Origin: Circinella umbellata
Taxonomy: Eukaryota; Mucoromycota; Mucoromycetes; Mucorales; Lichtheimiaceae
Direction of reading: 5' to 3'
NCBI GenBank assembly: GCA_025093555.1
Contig: JAIWNF010000069.1
Location: forward strand, 62,001-126,000
Length of the DNA stretch: 64,000 nt
Part shown: piece by piece, positions 3,949-61,400 of the stretch
Layout: every line of letters begins with the position of its first letter
Position numbering within the stretch: position 1 is the stretch's first letter
Translations under genes and position numbers: made by a program
The notes under the pieces: model-generated
Database searches by the model: none
The model's input: the letters and a program-made list of their open reading frames with translations, nothing else
What the model was told of the DNA's origin: nothing

Positions 3949-5589
3949 TTAAAGATTGGAATAATGAGCGGGTTTCTTTTGCATAAATCCTTGAATGCTC
4001 TTGGGAATATCCTATTAATAATAAGAAGAAGAAGGTTAAGAGAGAGAGAGAAAAAACATATATTAATTTTTATATCTGTAGATATGTCGCTATCATGAAC
4101 TTGATAAAAGAAAAAAGAAAACTTACTTCTGTTTGTAACATGGCACTGTTCCAAACCGCAGTGTATTGCAAACCTTCATCAACGCTATGATCACGAGAGT
4201 AATTCAACAAATGCCTATATTTTTACAGAATAAAATGAGTTCTGTGTTAGCGAAAAACGAAAAAAAGAAGGGCGAGAGGGGGGGGACCGTCAACAATAAT
4301 AAAATGTATGTTGCTTATTATAATTCTTACTTGGAGCTAACAACAGCAACAGGAGATTTGCTAGCAATGACACGAGCTGTCTTTAATGCATCCTCTAATA
4401 TATTTTTTAATCCATTAGGTATCACATTTAGCAAATAAATCATTTAGTTGTTATGACAGTTTCTTAGATACGTTACCAATCATTTCTTCCTTGGTATCAA
4501 AAAGCTTACTAATAAGACCACATCTGTATGCTTCATCGGCATACATACTAAAAGATAAATTACATTGATGGGATTAGTGACATTTGATTCAATTATTTTA
4601 GATTACCCCTTTTCTTAAGGTTAAACTTACTTGCGACCGGTGAAACATAATTCACGAGCCAAACTGTCGCTACCAATGACCTTTGGTAAACGTTGTAATG
4701 TACCAACATCTGGAGCCAAACCTAAATCTACTTCCTGAAATGAAGCATATTATTAACACAACATTGACAAATACATGTGTGTATAAATAAATGTTGAGAC
4801 GAAAAAAAATGGATTTTTTTTATATACCTTGACAGTATAAAATGAATCCTTGGTACCATAACGAATATCACCTGCAGTACATAAATCTACAGCGACACCA
4901 TAAACACCATAATGCATAGCAACAATGACAGGTTGTGGGCATTTTTCAAGAGCAGACATGGCACTTTGGAACCACTACAATAAATAAATAAATACAAATG
5001 ATATATTAGATAAAAAAATCAGTATTTTTTTCCTCTTTTGAACGGTAAGTTTTTTTTTACTCTTATAATATAAATAATAACAGAAAAGAGTGTTTTTTTT
5101 TACCTCAATATGCAAACGTTTAGTATAAGCTCTTCGTGCAACATCAGTATCAGGTTCACCTTTCATCAAAAAATTATCCTTGACTAAAATAATAAAAAGT
5201 TTCAGATCCCTCTTTTTTTGGAAATAATTTATGTGCCTAATTATCCCTCTTTGAAACTTACAATCAATACCAGAGGTAAAGGTACGACCATGTCCAGAAA
5301 GAATAATGGCACGAATAGTAGAATCTTGACCAAGAGTATTGAAACAGACACGAATATCTTCAACAAGGCTGAAAAAAATTACAAATCAATAGATATAAAA
5401 GATAGTTTTGAGAAATATTATCCAAGAAACTTTATCTTTCTTTGATTTTTTTTTAAAAAAAAATAAGTGTCCTTACGCTTCATTGATTGCATTTAAACGT
5501 TTAGGACGATAAAGTTCAACATGAGCTACACCTTCAGGATAAATATGAACTTTTAAATTTTCGTATTGGTATTTAGGACTAGAAGACAT
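3949..5589 (-). CDS. ECH1: Delta(3,5)-delta(2,4)-dienoyl-CoA isomerase, ECH1-like (copy A)
   Basis: This is an enoyl-CoA hydratase/isomerase superfamily enzyme that shifts double bases of dienoyl-CoAs during oxidation of unsaturated fatty acids. Nine exons (5477-5589, 5262-5368, 5104-5183, 4828-4974, 4631-4734, 4477-4547, 4331-4394, 4127-4214, 3949-4011) join to 278 aa with GT-AG introns. Visible motifs are SGHGRTFTSGID (oxyanion-hole region), VDLCTAGDIRYGTKD, KEVDLGLAPDVGTLQRLPK and YSRDHSVDEGL. The three acidic residues equivalent to rat ECH1 Asp176, Glu196 and Asp204 are present. The protein ends in SNL, a weak PTS1-like peroxisomal signal. The ATG gives an N-terminus matching copies B and D. 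It is tandem and co-oriented with copy B, with the same intron positions, so it arose by duplication. Family assignment is firm; peroxisomal location is inferred. Confidence 0.92.
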
Positions 5590-6125
5590 CTTTTCGATAT
5601 ATATGTAAACTAAAAAAAAAAAGTGAGGGAAAATAATAGAAAGGTCCAGTGTGGGGGAAGGGGATTTATATATAATAAAAGAGAAAAGAAAAAAAAAAAG
5701 GGTGTCTAAGATACCCCGCGCTTAAACATATTTGTAATTGAAAATCCTTGTTCATCCCCCGGCTTTTCAATTCCCGGCCTCACTTTACTCTTTTAAGGGA
5801 ATAACTCACCGAACATTTCAAGCAAGGACATCATATTTTTTTAAAAAAAGATAATCCATTTAGTATTACACACAAAAAATATTAAACTCGGTAAAGCAAA
5901 TAAAAAATCCATTATTCATTGAATAATATATCTGTTGTTAAAAAAAAAGAAGATTTTCTATAACATGAAAATCGACATGGTTCTTAGATAATGTATGTTT
6001 GTAAAACTTACAATAACTACGTATAGTAATTACAATAACTGTTTTATATATTGCTTTTTATTAACAACTTTTAATAAAATGGAAGAGGTAAACCTTTTAG
6101 AAAGGAAAAAATGTATCACTAAGCT
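5590..6125. other. Spacer between ECH1 copies A and B
   Basis: This 536-bp spacer holds the promoter region of copy A and the 3' flank of copy B. It is AT-rich and I see no gene in it. Confidence 0.5.
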
Positions 6126-14094: not shown

Positions 14095-14943
14095 ATGAAT
14101 CATGATGATGCCACCCCAGAATGGGCTAATGCCCTCCTCCAACGATTGCATGCAGTCGAACAGCAATTGGCTAATACAACCACTACTAATCAAGACCCTA
14201 ACGTTACAGTTCGCAATCCCGGAGCTGATTTTACTCCAACTGAACAAATGTTGGCTCAGTATCCATTCCTTCAAGAGAATTTCTTCAAACGACCATTGGA
14301 AGATCACCAACGAAGACAATTTCTTTTCGATTGTCCTAAGAATTCCGTTCGCACTTATGATCCACCCAAGATCAATAAAGTCACAATATCGAATTCAGCG
14401 AAGCATTACGATTCTGTTTTATATAATATACAATATCGATTATCAGGCCTCACAAGACCACTGGATTGGTTTTTATATCAAAACTTACATGGAAACTTCG
14501 ATGATGCTCACATTCGACAACAAAGTAGTGATTTTGCTCAAGCTATGCACGAACTATTATCTGATTTGGCTTCTTATATCACCACCTTACGAACTGATAA
14601 TCTTTACAAGGGTCTTCCCAATCACATCGAAGCTCCTGGTACCCAACAAGAAAAATTTTTGGTCGACACCCAAGACATGCTGGAACACATTAAACTCCAG
14701 CAATCAATACAAACTATCACTCAATGAAGACCCAAGAAAAACAAGGGACCTCGATCCCATAGTTTCCAAAAACAAGATCATGATAAGCAATATCATGAAC
14801 AATCTCAGCGTCGCTCCGCAGACAACACCAATCATCAGCAATCATCATCTTATAATATGGTCAATAACGTGGCTTCACGACCCCAGCAACAATCTCAGCA
14901 GCGGGATTTTCATCCTCGCCAATCTCACCCAAGAACGAATTAA
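14095..14943 (+). pseudogene. DIRS gag-like ORF1 with in-frame TGA
   Basis: ATG at 14095 opens a 210-codon frame that ends at TGA 14725-14727. The same frame continues for 71 codons to TAA at 14941-14943 with a basic, Gln/Ser-rich tail, as expected for a nucleic-acid-binding C-terminus. The simplest reading is one gag-like protein of about 280 residues cut by a nonsense change (CGA to TGA would explain it). The N-terminal part has a Leu-rich helix (WANALLQRLHAVEQQLA). No zinc knuckle is seen. The possible alternative is programmed readthrough. The product would package element RNA. Its downstream neighbour is the reverse transcriptase frame, which opens right at the TAA. Confidence 0.7.
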
Positions 14944-16796
14944 AAAAGGTCAGAGGACGTCTATCTTCCTTTTCTTCTACATGGTCTTCTTCTCTTGGTT
15001 TCCAAATTTCACCATGGCTCAGCACACTACTCAAGCGCGGTTACCGCCTTCCGCTCCTGTCTCCGCCACCACTTACAAACCACCACAATTTTCTGCACTC
15101 CTTCGAAGACTCCACTTCAATAATAGACCAAGAAATCAAGACTCTATTAGACAAGAATGCTATCGAACAAGTTTCTCTGCCATCTCCAGGCTTCCAGTCT
15201 CGCCTATTTTTACTCCCGAAAAAGGATGGAGGCCTTCGTCCGGTTCTCAACCTCCGTCCCCTGAATCAATTTCTACCAACGATTCATTTCAAGATGGAAT
15301 CTTGGCCCACCATAACCAATATGGTCCAACAAGGAGACTACCTAACATCAATCGACTTAAAAGATGCATTCCACCACATTCTGATTCACCCAGCACATCG
15401 TCATCTTTTGCAGTTTCAATGGCGCAAACAACTGTACCAATACAAAGTACTCCCCTTCGGTCTCAGTCTGTCACCAATAATATTTACCAAAACACTGAAA
15501 CCAATATTGAAATGGGCTCAGCAGCAGGGCATTCGTTTGAGAGCTTACATGGACGACTTACTGATTATGGCAAACTCAGCAACACAAGCACAACAACACA
15601 CTCAGCTGATCTCTCAAAAATTACAAGAACTGGGTTGGCTCCTCAACTTCAAAAAGTCCCAACTCATTCCAACACAAAAAATCGATCATTTAGGGATGTG
15701 TCTCAACACACAAACAATGACGATCTCAATTCCGGGCAAGAAAATTCGTACCCTTCGACGCACAGCCTATCAAATGCTTCATATGAAGACCATACCATGG
15801 ACGAGGCTAGCCCAATTCATCGGTTCGGCAGTCGCCACTCAACTAGGAAATCAACAAGCAAGGTTTCGCACTCGTCACTTATTAAAACAGCTCAATCGAA
15901 CTCGCCATCAACAAACTGCTATGATTACACCTCATATGCAACAAGAGCTGGTTTGGTGGACCACACAATTTCAAACTTGGAACGGCTCTCACATTTTACA
16001 ACACCAACCTCTGACACAAATATTTACGGATGCTTCGACAACCGGCTTTGGCATAGTCAAAGACCATACATACCTATCTGGGAAATGGACTGTCAAAGAA
16101 AAGAAATTTCACATAAATTATTTGGAACTTCTCATGGTATGGAAAGTTTTACAAACACCTCACTTGATCACCAGCTCACACATACAATTATGCATGGACA
16201 ACATCAGTGCAATGGCATACATTCGACATTTTGGAGGAACCAGGTCCAAGATACTCAACACTTTAGCTATGAAGATATGGACATATTGTTTCCAACACCG
16301 TATCACACTAACAACACTTTATGTACCTTCAGCGCACAACCCAGCAGACTCACCATCTCGTGCAATGATGACGCAAAACGAATGGCAATTACCTCACATG
16401 ACGTATCAACATTTAAACCAGCTTTGGGGTCCTCACCACATCGATCTTTTTGCTTCCGCAACCAACCGCCAAATCCAACAATTTGTGAGCTGGAATCATC
16501 ACCCTCAAGCTCTATGGACCAATGCATTCAGCAAAATTTGGACAGCACAAATGGGTCGTCTATATCTAGCCCCACCATGGAATTTGATTTTACGATGCCT
16601 TCAACGATTAATTCAACAGCCACTTCCAGCAACTCTGATCACCCCAAATTGGCGAACAGCACTATGGTACCCTTTAGCAATACAGCTCGCACTCGAACCA
16701 CCAATTGTCATCACCACACCAACAAAAGAGAACGATCTGTTGAACAAGAATGCAACATGGACCTTGCTCGCATGGAACCTCGGCAAAAAACACTAA
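14943..16796 (+). CDS. DIRS reverse transcriptase / RNase H
   Basis: The frame is open from about 14943; its first ATG (15294) is already inside the RT domain, so translation probably depends on frameshift or another mechanism from ORF1. RT signatures include LFLLPKKDGGLRPVLNLRPL (about 15201-15260), SIDLKDAFHHI, LPFGLSLSPIIFTK and the catalytic YMDD box at 15545-15556. RNase H follows with TDAS near 16026, a Glu in YLELL, an Asp in CMDNISA and HNPADSPSR. This order (RT then RNase H, then a separate tyrosine recombinase) is that of DIRS elements. It would copy element RNA into DNA in a cytoplasmic or nuclear particle. No internal stops are seen. Confidence 0.9.
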   Translation, partial: KKVRGRLSSFSSTWSSSLGFQISPWLSTLLKRGYRLPLLSPPPLTNHHNFLHSFEDSTSIIDQEIKTLLDKNAIEQVSLPSPGFQSRLFLLPKKDGGLRPVLNLRPLNQFLPTIHFKMESWPTITNMVQQGDYLTSIDLKDAFHHILIHPAHRHLLQFQWRKQLYQYKVLPFGLSLSPIIFTKTLKPILKWAQQQGIRLRAYMDDLLIMANSATQAQQHTQLISQKLQELGWLLNFKKSQLIPTQKIDHLGMCLNTQTMTISIPGKKIRTLRRTAYQMLHMKTIPWTRLAQFIGSAVATQLGNQQARFRTRHLLKQLNRTRHQQTAMITPHMQQELVWWTTQFQTWNGSHILQHQPLTQIFTDASTTGFGIVKDHTYLSGKWTVKEKKFHINYLELLMVWKVLQTPHLITSSHIQLCMDNISAMAYIRHFGGTRSKILNTLAMKIWTYCFQHRITLTTLYVPSAHNPADSPSRAMMTQNEWQLPHMTYQHLNQLWGPHHIDLFASATNRQIQQFVSWNHHPQALWTNAFSKIWTAQMGRLYLAPPWNLILRCLQRLIQQPLPATLITPNWRTALWYPLAIQLALEPPIVITTPTKENDLLNKNATWTLLAWNLGKKH

Positions 16797-17794
16797 AATC
16801 AGCCTCTGGTGCGGCTATAGCTATCACCAACAAGACAAATAAAATTAACCCATCAACAAAAATTCGACAAGCCGTATATGAACGCTGGTGTGAATTTACC
16901 GATTTAAATTTCATGGAACCCAATGTATTCCATTTAACCGGTTTTCTTGCATCACAGTATGAAACTAAGAAATGGAAAATAAGTACGGTGCTTGCTTATC
17001 AATCGTCAATACTGGCACTTTTTACTACCGCACAAAGCAACCAGATACGTAACCATCAGCATTTCCAAGACTTTCAAAAAGGTTTACGTCAAGGCAACAT
17101 ACTTCCACAAAAATCCTTTGAATATGATTTGCAACCAGCATTAACTTATATTCTCTCATTGGGCGATAACAACAAGATGACCGTCGAATTATTAACTGCC
17201 AAATTAGCATGGTTGTTAGCAATGGTTGGTTTCTTACGTCCTTCAGACATCGAACGTATTGACCTCACTCAATGTTCTATTTCATCTGACGATATTCTTT
17301 CACTCGTCATTGTTGCTCTGAAAGAAAAACGCAGTGGTATGCGCATTACCAAAACCGTAGTTATACATCCTCATTCTGATCAACTAGTTTGTCCCGTCAA
17401 CACTTACAAGGTTTATTGTTCTCGAGTTACTTCTTCCCTGGTGTCTGTCCCACATCCAGTTTTTCCAAACGTATTATTAGTACCACTATTACGATACGTG
17501 AATCATCATGATCAAAGCTTATCAAGTCAGCGCATTGGCAAATATATTAATCAAGTCATGAAGTTTGTTGGCCGTCCACCAGGAGCTCCTCTCCCAAAGG
17601 CAAGAGCTTTGGGTGCTACCCTGGCAGCACAAGCAGGCGTATCCATCGAAAATCTCGTAGTACAAGGCAACTGGTCGTCAAAGAAAATGTTTGAACAATT
17701 TTACCGTATTTCTGTCCAAACAAAAGAAAATTTCACTACAAGTACTCTGGATTCACAGCCAAGGTCCCTGACAAGGATGTGTAATGTACAGTAA
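16757..17794 (+). CDS. DIRS tyrosine recombinase
   Basis: This frame encodes the integrase of the element. The start is uncertain; ATG 16757 is used because the conserved region (TKIRQAVYERWCEF onwards) begins just after it. The core includes LAMVGFLRPSDIERI, with the first catalytic Arg, a Lys-bearing strand segment (IVALKEKRSG), the second Arg region KARALGATLAAQ, and GNWSSKKMFEQFYR with the candidate nucleophilic Tyr. The His of the usual HxxR box is not obvious and may be replaced. The same frame stays open upstream to 14102, but that part shows no family resemblance. It overlaps the 3' end of the RT frame by about 40 bases. Confidence 0.82.
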   Translation: MDLARMEPRQKTLKSASGAAIAITNKTNKINPSTKIRQAVYERWCEFTDLNFMEPNVFHLTGFLASQYETKKWKISTVLAYQSSILALFTTAQSNQIRNHQHFQDFQKGLRQGNILPQKSFEYDLQPALTYILSLGDNNKMTVELLTAKLAWLLAMVGFLRPSDIERIDLTQCSISSDDILSLVIVALKEKRSGMRITKTVVIHPHSDQLVCPVNTYKVYCSRVTSSLVSVPHPVFPNVLLVPLLRYVNHHDQSLSSQRIGKYINQVMKFVGRPPGAPLPKARALGATLAAQAGVSIENLVVQGNWSSKKMFEQFYRISVQTKENFTTSTLDSQPRSLTRMCNVQ

Positions 17795-40916: not shown

Positions 40917-43900
40917 ATGAAATATTCTACTATTATTCTTTTTGCCTGCATTTTCGTTCTTTTTGCAGCATCCTTCAGTGCCGCTCAACCAATCAATGAC
41001 AATCAGCTTTCAGGTGATATTGATCCTATCTCTCTTGAAGACGCTCGTAAGTTACAAATAAAGAAAACAGAGTTAGTTGTCTTTTATGATGACACACAAA
41101 AAAAAACAAATTTTAACCGAATTGATTGTAAACATAATAAATGTCATTTATACCTTTAAAATTAAATGTGCGCACTGTTGATGATTGATAGTTGGTACGT
41201 TAATAAATAAGATACGAAAACAAACATTTTTTAGAATGGGATACAGATAAAGAGTTACTAATATAATTCAATGTGAACATTACAAACAACATTCATTATT
41301 TTGAAACCATATGTTTGGATCATTGATAGGTGGTAAGCTAAACAAAAAGGAAATAAACCTAACATTCCTTATTACGTATAACAGAAGAGCAACAAAATAC
41401 TGACAGAATTCACTGTAAAAATTTTAAATGGTATCCATTACTTTAAAATTAAATATATGAATGGTTAATAGCTAGTAAGTTACAAAATGAGGGAGTGGGG
41501 CTAATGTTTCTTATAATGGCAGAGCGATGAAGAAATGCTAGAACACTGCATTGTAAAAATAACAAACCACAATCATTACTTTAAAACTAACTGTGTAAAT
41601 ATATAAAATAGTTCGTAAGTTACATAATAAGGGCCCCGCCTTCACACTTTTTATAATTGTACAGCAAAGAATAAATACTAACACAATTCACTGGAAAAAT
41701 GACAAACCACCATCATCACTCTAAAACGAAATGTGCGGAATATTAATAGGTGGTAAGTTAAAATTTAAGGCAGTAAAGTTGATCCGTTTTATAATCACAG
41801 CAAAGAATAAAGACTAACAAAATTCATCGTAAATATTTTAAATACGTAACATCCATTAAAATAAAACCGAATGTGTACATCATTGATAGCTCGTAAGTTA
41901 AAGATGAGGAGGTCATCTTAAGGTTTTTCATTGTGGCACAAAAAAGAACAAATACTAACAAAATTCTTCGTAAAAATTACAAATGAAATCCTTTACTTTT
42001 AAATCAAATGTGTGCTTCATAAATAGAAAGTAAGTTAAATAATAGAAAATCGTTTCTAATACTATTAATGATCCCACTTAAACAAAAACAATACTCACAC
42101 AATATATTCTAACAATTATAAATAACAACCATTACATTAAAACCGAAATGTGTTGAATATTAATAGTTCGTAAGTTAAAAAAGAAGTGACCGAAGTTAAT
42201 CTTTACGATAGCGGTACCAAAACAACAGTACTAACAGGACTCATTTTAAAAATTATAAATAACATTGATAACTTGAAAACCAAATATGCGGTGTGTTAAT
42301 AGATGGTAATTAAAAAAAAAGGGAGTAATGTTGATTTTCTTCTAATGACCGAAAGAGGACAAAATACTAACACATTTTATTGCAAACATGATAAATGACA
42401 TCCATTATTTTAAAATCAAATGAATAACATATTAATAGAAAGTAAGTTAGATAATAAATTAGTGGAGATTAATTTTTTTTCTTAAAACGCTAGCAAAAAG
42501 AGCTAATACTAACTAAAATGAATGTAAAATCACAAACAACACACATTACGCACTCTAAAACCAAATATGTGGACTATCAATAGTTAGTAAGTATCTAAAT
42601 AAGGGAGTGTCGTGTTTGTTCTTATAATGGCAGAAAGATAAAAACATACTAATATAATACATTGGACATAACACGATAAATTACGCCCATTACATTAAAC
42701 CCAAATGCGTGAAATTTTAATAGAAGGTAAGTTAAATAATAAAGAACAGAGATTTTCTTTCCTAAAACGCTAGCAAAAAGGGCTAATATTAATTAAACGG
42801 AATATAAAATTTTTAATGATATGCATTACTCTACTATAAATAGCTCGTAAGTAACTTAATAAATAGAGGAGTGCCGGGTTTGTTTCTTATAATGGCAGAA
42901 AGACGGAAAAATACTAACAGAATCCATTGTAAAAAACACGATCAATAACTTCCACTACGTTAAATCCAAATGCGTGAATTATCAATAGAAAGTAAGTTAA
43001 ATAATAAACGCTCAGAGTGAACATTTTTTATAATGGCATAAAAAACAAATGCTAACAAAACCCAATACAAAAACAATAAATGAAACCTGTTAACTCAAAA
43101 CCAAAAATATGGATTATCAATAGTTCGTAAGTTATACTGAGGGAGTCAAGTTGCGCATTTTTATAATAGAACAAAAAAGAACAAGTACTAACATAACTCA
43201 TTGTAAAAAACTATAAATGGTATATCCATTACCTTTAAACCAAATATGTGGACTATTACTAGGTGGTAAGTAAGAAAATATGGGAGTAGAGATACCATTT
43301 TTTATAATGTCATAGAAAACAATAAGTACTAATAGAGTCGATTGTAATTATCATAAACTACATACATTACTGTAATACTCATGGTATCGATTATTTATAG
43401 TTTGTAAGTTACAAAAATAAGATGCTATATTTAATGCTTGTTACAGTAGCAGAAAAAAAGAAACACTAACTAAATTTATTGTAAATATGATAAATAATAT
43501 CCACTACTTTAAAACCAACTGTATGAACGATTGATAGCTGGTAAGTTACAAAATAAGGGTGTGGAGTTGATGTTTGTTATAGTGTTAAAGAAAAGTCCAA
43601 ATACTAACAGAACCTATTGTAAAAATTATAAACGACATCTATTACTTTTAAACCAAATGTGTGGTTATCAACAGTTGGTAAGTTACAAAATCGTAGAGTA
43701 TAGATAAGCATGTCTAAAACGTTAGCAAAAAAAAAAGAAAAAAGAAAATTGATTACTAACTAAGCTGAATGTAAAATTATAAATGGTGCCTATTACTTTA
43801 AAACTAAATGCGTGGATTATTAACAGGTGGTAAGTTACAAAATAAAGGAGTGGGGATACACTTTTCTATAACTTTAGAAAAATGAGAAATACTAATCAAG

Positions 43901-46900
43901 TGGAATGTAAAATCATCAATGACACCCATTACTTCAAAAACAAATGTGTGGCTTATTAATAGATCGTAAGTTAATAAATGAGAGAGTGGTGTTGGTTTCT
44001 TCAATGGCCGAAAGACGACAAAATACTAACAGAACCCATTGTAAACGTGATGAATAACATACACTATCAAAAATGAAATGTGTGGATTTTAATAGAAAGT
44101 AAGTTAAATAAGAGCAGAGTAGAGATGACATTTCTTATAATAGCACAAAAAAGAAAAAACTCTAACAGCATTCCTTGTAAAAATTGTAAATGATATCCAT
44201 TACATTAAAATGAAATATATGGACTATCAATAGAAAGTAAGTTAAATAAGAGTATGTGGGGATAGCATGTCTTATAATGGCACAAAAATAAACAAATACT
44301 AACAGAATTCATTGTAAACAATATAAATGACATCTATTATTTTAAAACCAAACGTGTAAACTATTAATAGCTGGTAAGTCAGAAAATGCGGGAGTAGAGT
44401 TGACATTCCTTATAATGGAAGACAAACGAACAAGTACTGATAGAATTTATTGTAAACATTATAAATTACATCCATTACTGCAAAACGCAATGCTTGCTTT
44501 ATATATAGAACGTAAGTCAAGATCAGAGGGGTTATAGATACCATTTTTTATAGTGCTACTAAAAAAGAAATAATACTCACAAATTTCATTCTGACAATTA
44601 TAAACGACAACCATAATACTAAAATCGAAATGTGTTGAATATCAATAGTTCGTAAGTCAAAAAAGAAGGGTTAAAGCTAATCTTTATTATAGTAGTAACA
44701 AAATAAGAGTACTAACAAAATCTGTCGTAAAAATGATAAATGACATCGGTTACTTCAAAACCAAATATTCTGTTTATTAATAGGTGGTACGTTAAAACAA
44801 ATAAGGGATTGACGTTAATTTTTTTCTAATGGTCAAAAGTCGAGAAAATACTAACACACTCTATTGTAAACATGATAAATGGCGTCCATTATTTTAAAAT
44901 TAAATGCATAAATTATTAATAGCTCGTAAGTACTGAATAATAAAGGGAGTGACGTTGCTTCTAAAATGGCAGAAAGACAAAAAAATACTAACAGAGTCCC
45001 ATCGTACAAAACACGATACATGACCTCTCCACTACATTAAATCCAAATGTGTGCTTTATTTATAAATAGATCGTAAGCTAAATAATAGGAAATCGTAGAT
45101 AGTATTTTTTTTTTTATAGGGCCACTCAAAAAAAAGAAACAATACTCACACAATTCATTCTAACAATTATAAATGACAACCATTACATCAAATCAAAATC
45201 TGTTGATTATTGATAGTTCGTAAGTTAAAAAGGAAGGGAGCGAAATTAATCTTTATTATAGCGGTACCAAAACAACAATACTAACAGGATTCATTGTAAA
45301 AATTGTAAATGACCTCGATTACTTCAAAACCAAATGCGCAACTTATTAATAGATAGTAAGTTGAAAAATAAGGGAGTGGTGTTGATCTTTTTCTAATGGC
45401 CAAAAGACGAGAAAATACTAAAACACTCCATTGTAAACATAATAAATGACGCCCGTTACTTTAAAATCAAATGAATGAATTATTAATAGAAAGTAAGTTA
45501 AATAATAAGAGAGTGGCAATAATGTTTCTTGTATTGACATAAAAACAACAATACTAACAAATTGTAAATGTTAAAATTTTAAATGACATCCATCTCTTTA
45601 AAACCAATGTGGTGATTTATTTATAGTCGGTAAATAATTAAAGGGGGAGTGGTGTGTTTGTTTCTTATAGCGGGAAAAAGATGAAAAAATACTAACACAA
45701 CCCATTGGACATAACATGATAAATGACGCCAATTACGTTAAAACCAATTGTGTGGATTATTAATAGCAAGTAAGTTAAATAATAAGCGAGTGGAGATACT
45801 CTTTTTTTATAACGCTAGCAAAAAGGACTATTACTAATTAAACTGAATATAACATTAATATAAATTACATTCTTTACTCTAAAACCAACTACGTGGACTG
45901 TTTATAGCTCGTAAGTGACTAAATAAAGGGAATGACATTGTTGCTTCTCGTAATGGCAGAAAGAGGAAAAAATACTAACAGAATCCATTGTACAAAACAC
46001 GATAAATGACCTCCGGTACGTTAAATTCAACTGTGTGAATTATTAATAGAAAGTAAGTTGAATAATAAGGGAGTGGAGTGAACGTTTTCTGTAATGGCGC
46101 AAAAAAGTAAAACAAATACTAACAAAATTTTTAAATGAAATCCATTAATTCAAAACCAAATGTGCCGATTATTAATAGTTCGTAAGTTATGATGAAAAAG
46201 TCAAGTTGAGCTTCTTTACGATAATAGCACGTAGAAGAACAGAAACTAACAGAATTCATTATAAAATTGAAAATGATAACTACTACTTTATAAACCAAAT
46301 ATGTGGATTATTATTAGGAAGTAAGTTTATAAATAAGAAAGAAATGAAGACACCGCTTTTTATAATGGTGCAACAATAAACAAAGTACTAACAAAATTTG
46401 TTTTAAAAATGATAAATGATATTCATTACTTTACTAGACGGTAAGTTAAAAAATATATAATCAAGTAGAGTTATTCCTATTTAAAATGGCTAAAATCGTA
46501 ACGAAAATTGTTTTACACATATTAAATGACATTCATCGCATTGAAACGGGATACGTGGTTTATTAATAGCTCGTAAGTTATAAATGAGGGAATCACGTGG
46601 AAGGCTTTTATAGTGGCTCAAAAAAGTATGAATACTAACAGAATCCATTGTAAAAATTATTTATGCTATTCATTACCTTAAAACCAAATGTTGTGATTAT
46701 CAACAGTTAGTAAGTTAAACATAAAGTAGTCTTTGTCTGATAATGGCAAGAAAAAGAACAACTGCTAACAGAACTCATTGTAAACATATGATAAATGACA
46801 TTTTCATTACTACGAAATGCGTTGGTTAATAGTTGGTAAGTTACAAAATAAGGGAGAGGGGATAAGCTTTCCTATACGTAACGTTAGGAAAAAAGAGAAA

Positions 46901-47087
46901 TACTAACTACGCTGAATGTAATATCATCAATGATACTCGTTACTTCGAAACCAAATGTGTAACTGAATAATAGAAGGTAAGTTAAAAAATAAGGGATTTA
47001 TAGATAATATTCTTGTTATATTGCCAGAATAAAAAGAGCAAAGTATTAACAAACTTCATTGTAAAAATTATAGCTTTGCGTGACTAG
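40917..47087 (+). CDS. Secreted 90-aa protein built from 43 tandem 3-nt exons
   Basis: The first exon (40917-41046) has 43 codons plus one base. It starts with a signal peptide (MKYSTIILFACIFVLFAA, then SFSAA) and a short acidic segment ending SLEDA. Then 43 exons of exactly three bases follow, each between an AG and a GT(A/C)A-type donor, at about 138-bp spacing. The last exon (47074-47087) supplies ALRD and TAG. All 44 introns are phase 1, so every microexon finishes one codon and begins the next. The joined frame has no stop. The part made by microexons has hydrophobic residues at 44, 47, 51, 54, 58 and 69, 73, 76, 80, 84, 88, the 3-4 spacing of amphipathic helices, with a VSVGD turn between. 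The function is unknown; a secreted helical hairpin or coiled coil is inferred. Reading through intron 1 would instead end within 38 codons after exon 1. Confidence 0.85.
41047..47073 (+). repeat. Tandem array of 44 related introns with 3-nt exons
   Basis: Units are 120-152 bp, mean about 138. Order within a unit: donor (GTAAGT in 38 of 44), a stretch with TATAATGGC, an A-rich segment, a TACTAAC-like branch point, an AG-free stretch of about 65-75 bases (consensus about ATTGTAAAAATTATAAATGA), then ATTAATAG or a variant. Acceptors are TAG in 41 and CAG in 3. Variant donors are GTACGT after microexons 1 and 27, GTAAGC after 2 and 29, GTAATT after 9 and GTAAAT after 33. The units have diverged, so the array is not recent, yet the splice signals are kept. 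Confidence 0.92.
41192..46976 (+). other. Map of the 43 microexons (first base, trinucleotide, residue completed)
   Basis: 41192 TTG L44; 41330 GTG G45; 41472 CTA A46; 41612 TTC I47; 41750 GTG R48; 41890 CTC A49; 42027 AAA Q50; 42167 TTC I51; 42303 ATG H52; 42439 AAA E53; 42584 TTA I54; 42724 AAG K55; 42844 CTC A56; 42989 AAA Q57; 43124 TTC I58; 43263 GTG R59; 43401 TTT V60; 43538 CTG S61; 43675 TTG V62; 43827 GTG G63; 43963 ATC D64; 44096 AAA Q65; 44234 AAA K66; 44371 CTG T67; 44509 AAC E68; 44649 TTC L69; 44784 GTG R70; 44923 CTC A71; 45070 ATC H72; 45217 TTC L73; 45353 ATA H74; 45490 AAA K75; 45627 TCG I76; 45767 CAA A77; 45908 CTC T78; 46050 AAA Q79; 46179 TTC I80; 46318 GAA R81; 46438 ACG N82; 46570 CTC A83; 46707 TTA L84; 46833 TTG I85; 46974 AAG E86. 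Each residue uses the last base of the previous exon and the first two of the listed one. Confidence 0.85.
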
Positions 47088-47900
47088 CAGACACAGTCAT
47101 TGGGTTGAAGTCATATAATAGGAATCAAGGACCAGACCATCAGGCTTGAATAAACGGAGTAGCAAGAATTAACCGTATCTTAGACTATCACATCTTTTTT
47201 TAAAAAAAGCAACCCCATTAAAACTATTATGTACTACATTTGTAGTCCTATTAAATTCTTCTGAAACACTTTTTTTTTACTACGATCTGATTTATTTTGT
47301 TTTACAGTTTATTGTTTAAAAATAAAACCATTTATAATGCAGTAGCTTTTCATTATGTAATGTTCATTATGAGTAGAAAATAGATACATAGTAGATAATT
47401 ATGTTGATCGATAAATGATGTTATTAATTATAGATATGTAGTTGTATGATACACATTAGAATTAGCTTACTGGATCTGATATGCCTGGTACTAGCTTTAT
47501 TTGTTACCATCACCTATAGCACCACCGTCACCGAGAAATATCTTCATGTAAATATGATAAAAGAACGTTTTTTTTTTCGCATGATAATTAGTAGATGAGC
47601 ATAATTATGGAATACAATTATATTAACGTATTTACTAATACGTACTGAAGAACATAGTATAAAGCAAATATATAACAATAGCAAAATAAAGTAAAAGTTG
47701 ATAATGTCTTAATCATACGTATACCGCTTTCTAACAAATCTTATATACAAAAGATGGCTCTCAGTACAGTCTACTAGTGGCTACACTCATACTTGAAATT
47801 GTAAAGCATACATACAACACAAATGTATTATGCTCGCTTTATAGGTAGTAAACCATATCTTCCAAGTCAATGTAAAAACCAGATTACACCAGTACAAACG
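47088..47900. other. 3' flank of the microexon gene
   Basis: AT-rich with no repeat units of the array after 47073. No further gene seen. Confidence 0.5.
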
Positions 47901-53267: not shown

Positions 53268-55463
53268 ATGACGTTAAATGATTTATTAACAGCAGAAAAT
53301 GTGGCCCAATATTTACCATTATCAGGTCATTTACCTAGTATACCAGGTCGTATTATTAATGTGACTCATCAAATACCTTATAATATAATCCGTTCACCAC
53401 CTACCATGACACCTATTGATAATTATGAGACGCATACCCAACAACAAGAAGAACAACAACAACCCGAACCCTCAGAACAAACAACAAAGAACAATCCACC
53501 TACTCCACCTTATTCACCTTACAATTCATCCTTTGAATCCACCACAGATGAAGAAGAACGTGAAAGTATTGATTTATTTAAAAAAATGCATCAACATTCT
53601 TATCAAAAAAGATCCACTTCTGCTTCTACTACTACTTCTTATCCATCAGGAGCACCTATTTCAAAAGTAGCCCGTCATCATCGACGTCAAGGTACTTTAC
53701 GTGTTAAATTTCATGCAGCTGATTGGACTGTCGTTCAAGGTCGTGGTCATGGTGCATTATATGCTGGTTTACAAAGTTTAAGTCAACACTGGGAAACAAT
53801 TCATATTGGTTGGACGGGTCCTATTCGTGTTTCTCAATCTCATTCTAAAAACAACAACACGAATAATAGCAATGGCAATAATACAAAGACAACTATTTCT
53901 TCAGAATCGATTGAATTAAAGGATAAACAAAAATTAGAAGGATTATTATGGGAAACAGGAAGAATTGTACCTATTTTTTTAGATGATAAGGTATCGAATG
54001 GTCATTATGATGGATATTGTAAAGAAGGTATAAAAAATAAAAAGGGGGAGGGAGATGAAAATAGTAAAGATAAATTAAAAATGGATTTTTGATTTTTTTT
54101 TTCCCGCTTTTATAGTTCTTTGGCCATTGTTTCATTATTTAGTATGGACAAATGCTACTGATGGAAGAAATGAAAAACAATATTGGGAAGATTATGTATT
54201 TGTCAATCAACAATTTGCAAATACAATTATTTCCCACTATAAAAAAGGCGATATTAGTAAGTTTTTTTTTGGAGGGGGGAAATAACGGATTATATATATA
54301 TAGAATAATAATAATATTATTTTTTTTGCAGTTTGCATCCAGGATTATCATCTCCTATTGGTTCCAGAGATGGTTCGTGCACAAATACCAGATGCCGCTA
54401 TCGGTATTTTTATCCATGCAACATTTCCAAGTTCAGAGATTTTCCGTTGTTTAGCAGGTAAGAAAAAAAAAACTATGCACGGGATATTCTTTTTTCATTC
54501 TGATTATTTTGTTTTTTTTTTTCTCTTCCCATTATTGTAGCACGAAATGAAATTTTAAAAGGAATGGCTAGTGCCGATCTGGTGGGATTTCAGGTAAAAA
54601 AAAAAAAAAAGATGTAGCTTGTACTACGTACATCTCCAACCAAACTATGCTACATGGAACCAAATTCACTTAAACAAAATATATAAAATATATTTATTAT
54701 AGACTTATTCTTATGCACGTCATTTTATATCATCATGTACACGTGTTCTCGGATATGAAAGTACATTAGTAGGTGTAAATGCCAATGCGCATCAAGTCTC
54801 TGTAGGTACTTTTCCTATCGGAATTGATATTGATCGGGTCAATCGGTTCCGAAAACAACCAGGTGTTCAACCCAAAATGGATGCTATTCGATCCATGTAT
54901 ACTGATAAAAAAATTATTATTGGTCGGGATAAATTGGATCAAACCAAAGGTGTTTTACAAAAATTACGTGCCTTTGAACAATTTTTACATGATTATCCTG
55001 AATGGCGTAATCAAGTCGTCTTAATTCAAGTCACTACACCTACCACCAGTGGGAATTATAGATTATTGGAAACAAAAGTATCGGAATTAGTCAGTCAAAT
55101 TAATGGCATGTATGGTTCACTTGAATTTACACCTGTTCATCATTATCATCAAGATATCGATCGTGATGAATATTATGCTTTGTTATCAGCAGCTGATGTT
55201 GGATTAATTACAAGTGTACGTGATGGTATGAATACAACTTCTTTTGAATTTATTATTTGTCAACATGAAGAACGTCACAGTCCATTGATTTTATCCGAGT
55301 TTACTGGAACGGCTGGATCACTAAGTGCTGCATTAATGGTCAATCCATGGGATTCAGTGGGTGTTGCCAAGGCAATTAAGGAAGCACTTGTGATGACACC
55401 AGAAGAAAAATTGACTCGACATATGGTAAGTTTTTTTTTATGAATCCCGGTTTAAATGGGGTG

Positions 55464-58466: not shown

Positions 58467-61400
58467 TTAATAATTACTACTCTTTTTCATTTCATCTTGT
58501 ATTTTACGATGAAGAACACACATATAATCTACATAAGTCTGTACTTCTGCATTACGATCTTCTGTCATCCATGTAGAAAATAAAAATTCAATAGGATCCA
58601 TTTCTTGTCTTACAATACGTAATTGTAAACATCGTGTTCTTTCAGATTGTAATTGTCTTGAAATATCATGAATTCTTTCTGATAATGAATTATCCAAAAT
58701 AGGTAAAGTTGTCTATTATAAAAAGTAGTAATTCATTAAGATCAGATACATAACATAGAATAGAATGAATATATATTTACCATGTTAGGATCTATTTGAT
58801 CTAAACGGTCTACACCAAATACTTGTTGTGTAAATTCATTAGAGATTTTATTTCCAATCCAGAAATAAAGATCAGACCCAGTATCTAATAGTTTTTTTTA
58901 TTATTTGTTAGTTTCATTCTAGATGAGAAGAAAGGATATCAGAATCTTTTTTTTTTACTTACCAAGTAAATAAGCACCTTTAGAATCTAAACGTTCATAA
59001 GATGTACGGATCATAGGTGGTAATTTAACTTCACCTTTCAAGTTGGCAACACCATCTTCTCCTGTTAATTGATGTACAGCAAACATACGTGGATAGAGAG
59101 ATAAAACAAATTCATAAACACTCATACTATTTAATCCTTTCATACCAGCTACTCTTGCATCAATATTTATATCTGCTCCCACTATATATATATATCATTC
59201 ATTAGTATTTGATACATTGCTTATATAATATATATATATACAACTTACCACCACGTAAAGCATGAGATCGCATAGCACCATGCGCGTAAACAGGTAATAA
59301 TTTAAATGCTTCAGGTAAAATTAATTGACCAGCAGATGTGGATGCTGCACAATTAGTTCTATAAGCTGTAAGAATATCAACGCATTCTTCTGTTAATTTT
59401 GCATGAATATCTCGTCTAGTTTTATGATATGAATCAAATATAGCTAAAAAATAATAGAATAATGCATCATTCATTGTAAGCTTAATATTCAACTATTCTT
59501 TATAAATATAATAAATCCCTTTTAATATTACCTTTGCGTACAATGATACTAATAGCAGTATCTTCATCACCAGCACGAAATACATCTGCAATTTGATTGG
59601 TTACAGCTAAATTCAAATTATGCACACGTACACGTCGTTCACCAGAACGTGTAGTATATAATAATGCTGCTTGAAAATTAACTCCTTTTGAAATATCTAA
59701 TTTACTATCATGTTTTAAAACTGCTGCGAATGCTTTATCTTGATCAATTCCTGCTAAATCCATATCTGTATATGTACTCATATGACAATTTCCATAATGA
59801 TCAATCACTTGAAGACCTATTTTTTTTTAAAAAAAACTCAGCATTCATCTTTTAACCTCTTTGCCTTTTTTAAAAAAAAAATTATAATTCTTACCATCAG
59901 AACATCGAACACGCATAACACCATCAAAACCTATTTCACGATGAACATCATGATTTAACTGATATGCAATCTTAGAAGAATCTTGGACATGATTAAATCC
60001 TGGATAATAACGTAGATCACCTCCTGTCAAACTACTGATAACACCCAGTGTAGCAAGATCAATAAATTCAGTTGGGAAAACCCAAGTATGAACACACACT
60101 GCATTCTTGACACATTCATTTCCAAGTTCTTTATAAGCATCATTTTGTGGATTCAATAATTGTTTTTCCTTGTCTGTATTAAAAAGCGTTTTGGCATCTC
60201 TTGATCGAAGTGCATCATTACCAAAACTTGGTAAACATGATTGAAATACGAATAATTGACCACCTGTATTTTGCTATAATAATAAATCTTTTTTGTAAGA
60301 TCTTCTTCACCAAAAAGATTTGAAACTCTATATCAATATATATATCCATAGGGTTCTTACCAATGCTAATAAACCTCCTCGAACAGCCGATGTGTATACT
60401 GATTCTGGACGAACAGAATCTTTAAACATAGAAGGAAGATTATCAAGTAATTCAATAATAATATCTCTATTTATAATATTAACCAAAGTTTAGTAAAAAA
60501 AAACCCTCCCAATGTTGATATAAAATAAAACCATCAATAAAAAAAAACATACTGTGATTCCATTGGATTCACTAAAAATCCTTCTTGTAATGGTAAAAAC
60601 ATTTCATTGATATCACTCACAACCATCATTTGAGCTTGAGTTAATGCAGGCTAAATAATAATAAAATAATTATCTCAATAAACAAATTGGAAAACCATCT
60701 TTCCATACACACACGAGTAGGTATCTCAATTAAAAATAAAAAACAAACTTTACCGATAAATTATAAAATTGAACACTTTTATCAAATGTCAATAAGGCAA
60801 TACGATTTTCAGCAGTCAATCGATTCGTATCATCAAGATGATTCCCATAGAGTGTATGTTTAAGTGCTTGACAACATGATTCCAACATACCACTACGAAC
60901 GGCTTGAGCTGAAACATCAATAGCAAAAACATAATTCAAAGGGGCTGGTTTTCGATTTGGAGAATAATAATCCGAAGGTACTTTAAATTCCACCGAACCA
61001 TAACGTAATTCAGGACGTTGATCTACATCCATACGTCTTCCTGACATATCCACATTGGCAAAGTACCATGAAGGTACTTGATTTGAATGAGAACAAATAT
61101 TACAAACAAATCGAGATCCACCTTGAATAAAAGTACACCATGGATTAATATAAGCACGGCATCGAGAACAACGTACTGGTCCTTCTTCTTCACCCCCTCC
61201 TTGATTTTCTACTACTTGAATAGCTACTTCTTCTTTTTTATTCTTTGCCAAAGGTTGAATAATTAAGCCCATGGGTAATTTAGATTGATCAGCTAGTTCT
61301 TTACTGAATGGTATCTTATCCATAGTAGATCTTATAAAACGTGGATTACAATTTCCTATATATATATATATATATTTGTTTCCATAGAATATATCAAATC

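What the first reader, a model, noticed from the sequence alone, without database searches (positions are those of the whole stretch)
40917..47087. A gene made of 43 consecutive 3-nt exons
Seen directly: 43 times in a row, exactly three bases lie between an acceptor (TAG or CAG) and a donor (mostly GTAAGT), with nearly all units also carrying a recognisable branch point. Exon 1 gives a signal peptide, the joined frame has no stop over 43 codons, and TAG comes four codons after the last intron. The decoded part has regular 3-4 hydrophobic spacing, which random triplets would not give. 6.2 kb of DNA thus encodes 90 residues, with every codon after 43 until the last exon split by an intron. Schistosome micro-exon genes and aphid bicycle genes have many small exons, but I know of none built of tandem single-codon exons.
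Basis: partly seen in the sequence, partly recalled or inferred. Interest (0 to 1): 0.98.

Follow-up and report, generated by a model that had tools for sequence, protein, structure and literature searches.

The report
Genes spelled one codon per exon
In the mould Circinella umbellata, a family of six genes has its likely coding sequence broken into runs of 5 to 43 mostly three-letter pieces, set between spacers of about 134 bases that look like introns; splicing, not yet tested, would join these pieces into small, likely secreted proteins, one of which reads as a known surface-coat domain (chaplin), so a gene can apparently be built a single codon at a time.

Summary
In detail: 43 consecutive acceptor-NNN-donor units lie between a signal-peptide-like exon (40917-41046) and a terminal exon (47074-47087), in one open frame of 273 nt. 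It is neither chance nor a single oddity. The genome (Circinella umbellata) holds five more genes with a related first exon and arrays of their own: 106 decoded units, 99 of 3 nt and 7 of 6 nt. A scan allowing 1-30 nt gave 98 of 99 at 3 or 6 nt; the other is the end of an exon 1. Strongest evidence: one paralogue's microexons, joined in phase 1, read as a chaplin domain (PF03777, E=7.1e-10; the 26-residue microexon stretch alone 1.7e-7; 0 of 8 reordered controls). Introns show an AG-free zone (2 AG, about 261 expected). The array grew by duplication of whole units, including a 22-unit block that the peptide also shows. A two-exon gene shares the signal exon and its phase. Step-by-step splicing is inferred: no RNA was available. 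Helical order of the window peptide is weakly supported, and two paralogues show no codon-usage signal. The public gene model omits the array.

The parts
40917..41046 (+). Exon 1: signal-peptide-like start MKYSTIILFACIFVLFAASFSAAQPINDNQLSGDIDPISLEDA plus one base (phase 1)
   Evidence: related exons at five other loci with arrays and in a two-exon gene at C8; signal peptide judged by eye, no predictor run
41047..41191 (+). Intron 1 (145 nt), GTAAGT...TAG
41192..46976 (+). Array of 43 three-nt exons and the 42 introns between them. Microexon starts (each 3 nt): 41192, 41330, 41472, 41612, 41750, 41890, 42027, 42167, 42303, 42439, 42584, 42724, 42844, 42989, 43124, 43263, 43401, 43538, 43675, 43827, 43963, 44096, 44234, 44371, 44509, 44649, 44784, 44923, 45070, 45217, 45353, 45490, 45627, 45767, 45908, 46050, 46179, 46318, 46438, 46570, 46707, 46833, 46974
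42167..46976 (+). 22-unit segmental duplication: units 8-21 correspond to units 30-43 in intron sequence and in codons
46977..47073 (+). Last intron (97 nt), GTAAGT...TATTAAC...TAG
47074..47087 (+). Terminal exon CTTTGCGTGACTAG, in-frame stop
47088..47330 (+). Family 3' region (likely 3' UTR), conserved in paralogues
   Evidence: 4 of 5 paralogues at E 4.2e-18 or better; the fifth (C113) shows the same motif by eye

Best explanation
The window holds one of six Circinella umbellata genes in which a signal-peptide-like exon is followed by a tandem array of 3-nt (rarely 6-nt) candidate exons between homologous introns of about 134 nt, and the spliceosome is predicted to remove these introns one after another so that each step would add one codon to a small, likely secreted protein. 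Shown from sequence: the array, the open frame, 3n exon lengths, common phase 1, intron signals with an AG-free zone between branch site and acceptor, the paralogues, the chaplin match of one paralogue, and duplication of whole units. Inferred: inclusion of all microexons, the order of splicing, secretion and function. Because a 3-nt exon is thought to leave no room for factors at both of its splice sites at once, the likely route is intron definition with step-by-step (recursive-like) removal: when an intron goes, the growing exon gains three bases and its next GTAAGT donor becomes usable. Since each unit is 3n long and all boundaries are phase 1, a skipped, lost or duplicated unit should only remove or add whole residues. 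That would let unequal exchange inside introns lengthen or shorten the protein codon by codon. The products, a chaplin-like protein and a helix-like one among them, may be surface-active coat proteins of hyphae or spores.
For: Paralogue L009 (C177, about 29 kb) joined in phase 1 hits Pfam PF03777 ChpA-C at 39.0 bits, E=7.1e-10 (cut-off 21 bits). A strict set without the two doubtful 6-nt units still gives 2.4e-7; 0 of 8 reordered versions hit it. The 26 residues assembled from its 23 microexons (plus one base of exon 1 and two of the terminal exon) hit it alone at 1.7e-7. Exon lengths: 93 of 3 nt and 5 of 6 nt among 99 calls with lengths 1-30 allowed, the 99th being the end of exon 1 of L010; introns of the window array vary from 97 to 149 nt. 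Exon 1 ends in phase 1 in 6 of 6 array genes and in the two-exon relative. Window array: 0 stops in 44 codons, codon-usage log-odds +37.3 bits in frame against -32.7 and -37.9 in the others; third codon position T/A/C/G = 30/12/2/0. AG between branch site and acceptor: 2 observed, 261 expected by base shuffling, 243 GA as control, over 106 introns. The 22-unit duplication is visible in introns (mean identity at a distance of 22 units 72.3%, overall 68.5%) and in codons (64% over the 14 pairs of units 8-21 with 30-43, background 36%). The two-exon relative has homologues in Circinella minor that span its exon junction.
Against: No transcript or peptide was seen. Two paralogues, L010 and L011, show no codon-usage signal in frame (-15.6 and -6.9 bits), and pooled over all genes the real exon order is no better than shuffled order by codon usage (32% of shuffles as good); only absence of stops separates it (zero stops in 2.7% of shuffles; all). 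L007 and L008 each contain units that look dead (read by eye). The amphipathic-helix argument for the window peptide is not significant by moment. Two units of L009 that improve the chaplin score have weak donors (GTTAGT, GTAGAT). Either half of the chaplin stretch alone scores below cut-off (10.5 and 13.6 bits with the other half masked). Two of the six decoded proteins were searched against 5.8 billion predicted proteins: L009 found nothing and the window product found only the public model of its own gene. That model leaves the array out.
Confidence: 0.85

Rival explanations
1. The array is a tandem repeat inside one long non-coding stretch; the true transcript joins exon 1 to the terminal exon, or ends early as in the public gene model, and the triplets mean nothing.
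For: The only annotated product found, BDC45DRAFT_574789, goes from exon 1 to a stretch near 41386 and ends there. Joining exon 1 straight to 47074 would also be in frame (both boundaries phase 1). No RNA evidence was available.
Against: Chaplin match from the joined triplets; codon usage in one frame of the window array; spacing of 3 or 6 kept in six loci while introns vary in length; AG exclusion over 106 introns.
Confidence: 0.06
2. The array is spliced, but units are skipped at will: it is a generator of many single-residue-deletion variants rather than of one defined protein.
For: All decoded units are 3n and phase 1, so every subset stays in one frame; very short exons are hard to include (PMC4674806 passages); alternative splicing is discussed as a source of variation in schistosome micro-exon genes (PMC10526429 passages).
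Against: The L009 array spells a known domain in order, and donors are near consensus in almost every unit (GTAAGT in 94 of 106), which looks like constitutive inclusion.
Confidence: 0.2
3. Origin by insertion: copies of one introner-like intron entered every codon of ordinary reading frames, rather than growth by duplication of intron-plus-codon units.
For: The chaplin domain is known from bacteria, so its codon order probably predates the introns. Over 4851 pairs of 3-nt units, triplets are about as unlike as chance (33% identity) while intron flanks are 60% alike; triplet identity rises only when flank identity passes about 70-75%.
Against: Unit duplication is seen directly: 22 units in the window, two units in L010, one unit in L007. 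Insertion alone does not explain why all boundaries are phase 1. One whole unit used as a query hit only the six loci and fragments at C153 and C101; whether those fragments lie in other genes was not examined.
Confidence: 0.3

Closest known systems
Schistosome micro-exon genes (MEGs)
   Same: Secreted products with a signal peptide; many tiny exons, mostly multiples of three; gene families; hard to annotate (PMC10526429: abstract and passages seen).
   Different: MEG exons are mostly 15 bp (text: 6-81 bp; abstract: 3-81 bp) with introns of 100 to almost 5000 bp; here 99 of 106 decoded units are 3 nt, introns are about 134 nt and homologous to one another, and units duplicate in tandem. A fungus, not a flatworm; sequence relation was not tested.
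Aphid bicycle and megacycle genes
   Same: Families of putative effector or secreted proteins with many small internal exons of one phase; megacycle has over 100 microexons (PMC9168663: passages seen).
   Different: Bicycle internal exons are almost all phase 2, about 17 exons per gene; here phase 1 and mostly one codon each. No tandem intron repeat is described in the passages seen.
Single tiny exons: Arabidopsis APC11 1-nt exon, Fusarium CYP621A 1-nt exon, Drosophila homothorax 3-bp exon
   Same: Show that 1-3-nt exons can be spliced; [quoted passage not shown] PMC12940212 abstract; PMC7392893 listing only).
   Different: As far as seen, one such exon per gene, not tens in a row making most of the mature protein.
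Recursive splicing ratchet points
   Same: Juxtaposed acceptor and donor, with a donor regenerated after a step (PMC8605326 passages).
   Different: Zero bases are left behind, mostly in long introns; here each step would leave one codon.
Fungal introner-like elements
   Same: Families of near-identical introns within one genome (PMC4457414 passages).
   Different: Those sit in unrelated genes; here copies are tandem within one gene family.
Streptomyces chaplins (PF03777)
   Same: Paralogue L009 matches the domain above the curated cut-off; short, signal-peptide-like start, two Cys in the mature part (PMC3079736 passages).
   Different: Bacterial chaplins come from plain reading frames (recalled); no contiguous chaplin frame was found in this genome, in a search that rang in none of its control genomes either. 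The window gene itself is not a chaplin.

Membership tests
Micro-exon genes (as in schistosomes) | Signal-peptide exon followed by many symmetric tiny exons | tested here: met
   signal peptide by inspection only
Micro-exon genes (as in schistosomes) | Exons mostly about 15 bp, long introns up to 5 kb | tested here: not met
   99 of 106 decoded units 3 nt, 7 of 6 nt; introns before each unit 92-161 nt. The last introns are longer in three paralogues: 359 and 362 nt in L007 and L008, where dead-looking units were left out, and over 1 kb in L010 (by eye)
Micro-exon genes (as in schistosomes) | Expressed, alternatively spliced | not testable with these tools
   no RNA data
Chaplin (PF03777), paralogue L009 only | Score above Pfam's curated cut-off | tested here: met
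   39.0 bits, cut-off 21
Chaplin (PF03777), window gene | Score above Pfam's curated cut-off | tested here: not met
   no PF03777 hit for the window peptide
Chaplin (PF03777), paralogue L009 only | Surface activity, amyloid fibrils, hydrophobic coat | not testable with these tools
   needs protein
Introner-like elements | Near-identical introns in unrelated genes | tested here: inconclusive
   a two-unit pattern hits only the six loci; one unit as query hits the six loci and fragments at C153 and C101 whose gene context was not examined; three stray single matches at C70, C79 and C166 were not followed up
Functional U2 introns | Donor, branch site, acceptor and AG-free zone between the last two | tested here: met
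   sequence signals only
Bicycle genes | Internal exons of phase 2 | tested here: not met
   all decoded units are phase 1

The most novel reading that the evidence does not exclude
These loci are codon arrays: a form of gene in which the heritable unit is an intron carrying a single codon, so that recombination inside introns edits a secreted protein one residue at a time without ever breaking the frame, and the spliceosome reads the array as a ratchet, one codon per step. A whole known domain (chaplin) is written this way.
Probability: 0.6. Interest if true: 0.97.

Novelty: new variant of a known kind. Interest (0 to 1): 0.93.

Why it matters
If spliced as read, this is an extreme of exon size and number: up to 43 consecutive one-codon exons in one gene, in a family. 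It would test how the spliceosome handles exons too short for both splice sites to be bound at once, and whether splicing must run in order. It shows a route by which protein sequence could grow and shrink by single residues through recombination in introns. It also means that gene finders can miss such genes: here a chaplin-like domain, otherwise known to me from bacteria, does not show in a six-frame search. Related genomes may hold more; none could be read here.

Tried and rejected
Chance: rejected. Non-coding satellite: rejected mainly by the chaplin match. Genome-wide introner family: a two-unit pattern and one whole unit found family loci and two fragments only; counts from such searches are lower bounds. 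A shorter single-unit pattern had 44 matches, 41 in the six loci and 3 strays (C70, C79, C166) not followed up; its reversed control had 5. Contiguous chaplin frame in this genome: none, but no control genome rang either, so this is weak. Prokaryotic relatives of the decoded L009 protein: 190 stretches matched a pattern and none was confirmed. PDB: none for L009. NCBIfam: nothing for L009; for the window peptide two matches far below cut-off. Rfam on the window: none. Helix order of the window peptide: moments not significant. Viral contigs: 9 with one match each to the two-unit pattern, not followed up; I judge the number compatible with chance. Structure prediction was not tried: its rules admit direct translations, and a spliced product is not one. 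Eukaryote genomes other than the window's own were not available, so orthologous arrays could not be read. Ten paper searches on microexons, chaplins in fungi, introners and tiny exons listed no tandem one-codon-exon gene among the rows shown; only open-licence papers are searched. A hydrophobin paper (PMC3364958, passages) was looked at for coat proteins of Mucorales and had nothing on zygomycetes.
Full report
What is in the sequence. Exon 1 (40917-41046) encodes 43 residues that begin like a signal peptide (by inspection; no predictor was run) and ends one base into a codon. It is followed by 43 units in which three bases lie between an acceptor and a donor, and by a terminal exon at 47074-47087 with an in-frame stop. 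The joined frame of 273 nt reads MKYSTIILFACIFVLFAASFSAAQPINDNQLSGDIDPISLEDALGAIRAQIHEIKAQIRVSVGDQKTELRAHLHKIATQIRNALIEALRD. The 44 introns are 97-149 nt long (mean 134); 38 of 44 begin GTAAGT, 41 end TAG and 3 end CAG. Most carry a TACTAAC-like branch site, typically about 67 nt before the acceptor; a few automatic branch-site picks are plainly misplaced.

More than chance. A position-weight scan trained on the flanks of the 43 units, blind to exon length within 1-30 nt, returned 41 units in the window, all of length 3; two units have acceptors below its threshold. Over all six loci it returned 99 calls: 93 of 3 nt, 5 of 6 nt, and one of 14 nt that is the end of exon 1 in L010. A two-unit pattern with a free first exon of 1-12 nt matched 53 times in 50.8 Mb, all in the six loci, all with 3 nt; the reversed pattern matched once. 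A single loose unit is not remarkable: 49 matches with a gap of 0-18 nt, 29 of them with a gap of 3, against 69 for the reversed pattern.

A family. The genome (50.8 Mb, 210 contigs) holds five further loci with a related exon 1: two in tandem on C191, one more on C177, one on C147, one on C113. Each is followed by an array. The decoder, which allows exons of 3 or 6 nt only, gives 106 units: 99 of 3 nt and 7 of 6 nt; by gene 43 (window), 23 (L009), 18 (L010), 11 (L011), 6 (L007), 5 (L008). Dead-looking late units of L007 and L008 are not among them. Exon 1 ends in phase 1 in 6 of 6. In 5 of 6 the script reached an in-frame stop in the terminal exon. In L010 the last intron holds an inserted element, and by eye the terminal exon behind it also continues to a stop. 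The 3' region is conserved: 4 of 5 paralogues are found by it, the fifth by eye. Array fragments without a recognised exon 1 lie on C153 and C101; six fragment units printed can all be read with 3 nt, one of them with a weaker donor.

Organism. The only protein-database match of the window product is a hypothetical protein of Circinella umbellata on a contig of 204,370 bases, the length of contig C177 that holds the window. Its public model goes from exon 1 to a stretch near 41386 and ends, leaving out the array. The species belongs to the Mucorales, Lichtheimiaceae.

Strongest evidence that the triplets are codons. Joined in phase 1, paralogue L009 reads MQYSTIFLFACILVLSAAYSSIAQTSENAGTGGSATGNNPVPVPIHVPVNICGNVDVIGILNPACVDQNQGTQ. 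Pfam's chaplin model PF03777 matches it with 39.0 bits, E=7.1e-10, against a cut-off of 21 bits; without the two doubtful 6-nt units it is 30.9 bits, E=2.4e-7; 0 of 8 versions with the same microexons in another order match (7 random, 1 reversed). An earlier hand-decoded version with one of these units read as 3 nt gave 36.2 bits, E=5.4e-9. The 26 residues from P40 to C65, built from all 23 microexons plus one base of exon 1 and two of the terminal exon, match alone at 31.4 bits, E=1.7e-7. With one half masked the score falls to 10.5 or 13.6 bits, below cut-off, so the match rests on both halves together. Four of the six decoded products were sent to Pfam; the other three gave nothing above cut-off.

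Codon usage. Against a table of 2639 codons from five HSP70 loci and two window exons, the window array scores +37.3 bits in the predicted frame and -32.7 and -37.9 in the others (stops left out of the score; 0, 0 and 6 stops); L009 +7.8 against -24.8 and -5.4; L007 +10.6 and L008 +3.3 in frame; L010 (-15.6) and L011 (-6.9) show no signal. Pooled, real order is not better than shuffled exon order by codon usage (32% of shuffles as good), but zero stops occur in only 2.7% of such shuffles.

Introns. In the stretch from the branch site to the acceptor there are 2 AG in 6319 bases where base shuffling gives 261; the mirror dinucleotide GA occurs 243 times. Upstream of the branch site AG is common, 463 in 5885 (106 introns, last introns not included). 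This is what scanning for the first AG would require.

How the arrays change. Introns of the window array are on average 68.5% alike; the mean by distance, over distances of 1-34 units, peaks at 22 units (72.3%), with pairs up to 83.5%. The codons show the same register: over all pairs 22 apart 62% identity, over the 14 pairs of units 8-21 with 30-43 64%, background 36%; a distance of 11 gives 53%. L010 shows a two-unit repeat with nearly identical introns, L007 a one-unit repeat whose middle intron is a hybrid of its neighbours. In eight unit pairs picked for near-identical flanks, 7 of 30 exon bases differ against 18 of 693 flank bases (Fisher p=2.9e-5); 4 of the 7 come from one pair in L007, without which it is 3 of 24 against 17 of 607. 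In the older 22-unit register exons differ at 15 of 42 bases and flanks at 265 of 1325 (p=0.019). So codons change at least as fast as the intron flanks, within an open frame.

A plain relative. The signal exon also finds, weakly (E=0.098), a gene on C8 with a 100-nt exon 1 ending in phase 1, a 160-nt intron and one ordinary Cys-rich second exon. It has homologues of 115 and 107 residues in Circinella minor that span the junction. The array genes thus share their first exon and phase with a normal two-exon gene. No Pfam family matches it at E up to 1.

Mechanism (inferred). A 3-nt exon is unlikely to host factors at its acceptor and donor together. The likely route is intron definition with removal in sequence, as proposed for the 1-nt exon of Arabidopsis APC11 (PMC4674806, passages), and related to recursive splicing, where a donor is regenerated after a step (PMC8605326, passages). 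Here each step would leave one codon. Constant phase 1 and 3n length make skipping harmless to the frame.

Function (inferred). Chaplins coat aerial hyphae and spores of Streptomyces and lower surface tension (PMC3079736, passages). The window product has hydrophobic residues at 3-4 spacing (41 of 5000 shuffles as good) but no significant helical moment. A surface-coat role for the family is a guess.

Comparison. Schistosome MEGs and aphid bicycle genes are the nearest kinds: secreted or effector-like products and many small exons of one phase or of 3n length. They differ in exon size and in the absence, in the passages I saw, of tandem homologous introns. I file the finding as a new, extreme variant of micro-exon genes by how it is built, not as a member by descent.

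Limits. No RNA, no proteomics, no second species at DNA level.

Noticed in passing
L010 (C147:203000-212500), about positions 5110-6090, minus strand: An inserted element with inverted ends (GCCTCTTCTCGATTTTACCG / CGGTAAAATCGAGAAGGGGC) and a repeated CAAAACAAG on both sides sits in the last intron of the L010 array (by eye).
   Followed up: partly
C8:39251-39755, minus strand (L033): Two-exon gene for a Cys-rich secreted-looking protein with a signal exon like that of the array genes; homologues in Circinella minor.
   Followed up: partly
L040 (C153) and L041 (C101): Fragments of microexon arrays without a recognised exon 1, likely relics.
   Followed up: partly
L007 and L008 (C191): Two similar array genes about 5 kb apart; late units appear dead in each, and L007 has one extra 6-nt unit.
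   Followed up: partly
G000 C70:6025, C79:150350, C166:3887: Three stray matches AATAGATTGTAAGTTA to the single-unit pattern outside the family loci.
   Followed up: no
window 14102-17794 +: A 1230-aa open frame without a Pfam match in a GC-richer stretch (42%), overlapped by a 500-aa open frame; no tandem repeat found.
   Followed up: no
window 54877-55443 + and 60730-61323 -: Open frames matching glycosyltransferase family 20 and the Sec23/Sec24 zinc finger and trunk.
   Followed up: no
window 41192-46976: Besides 22 units, codons also repeat at a distance of 11 (53% identity), which recalls 11/22-residue helical repeats of apolipoproteins (recalled).
   Followed up: no
L012-L020 (viral contigs): Nine viral contigs each hold one match to the two-unit pattern; not examined, number judged compatible with chance.
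   Followed up: no
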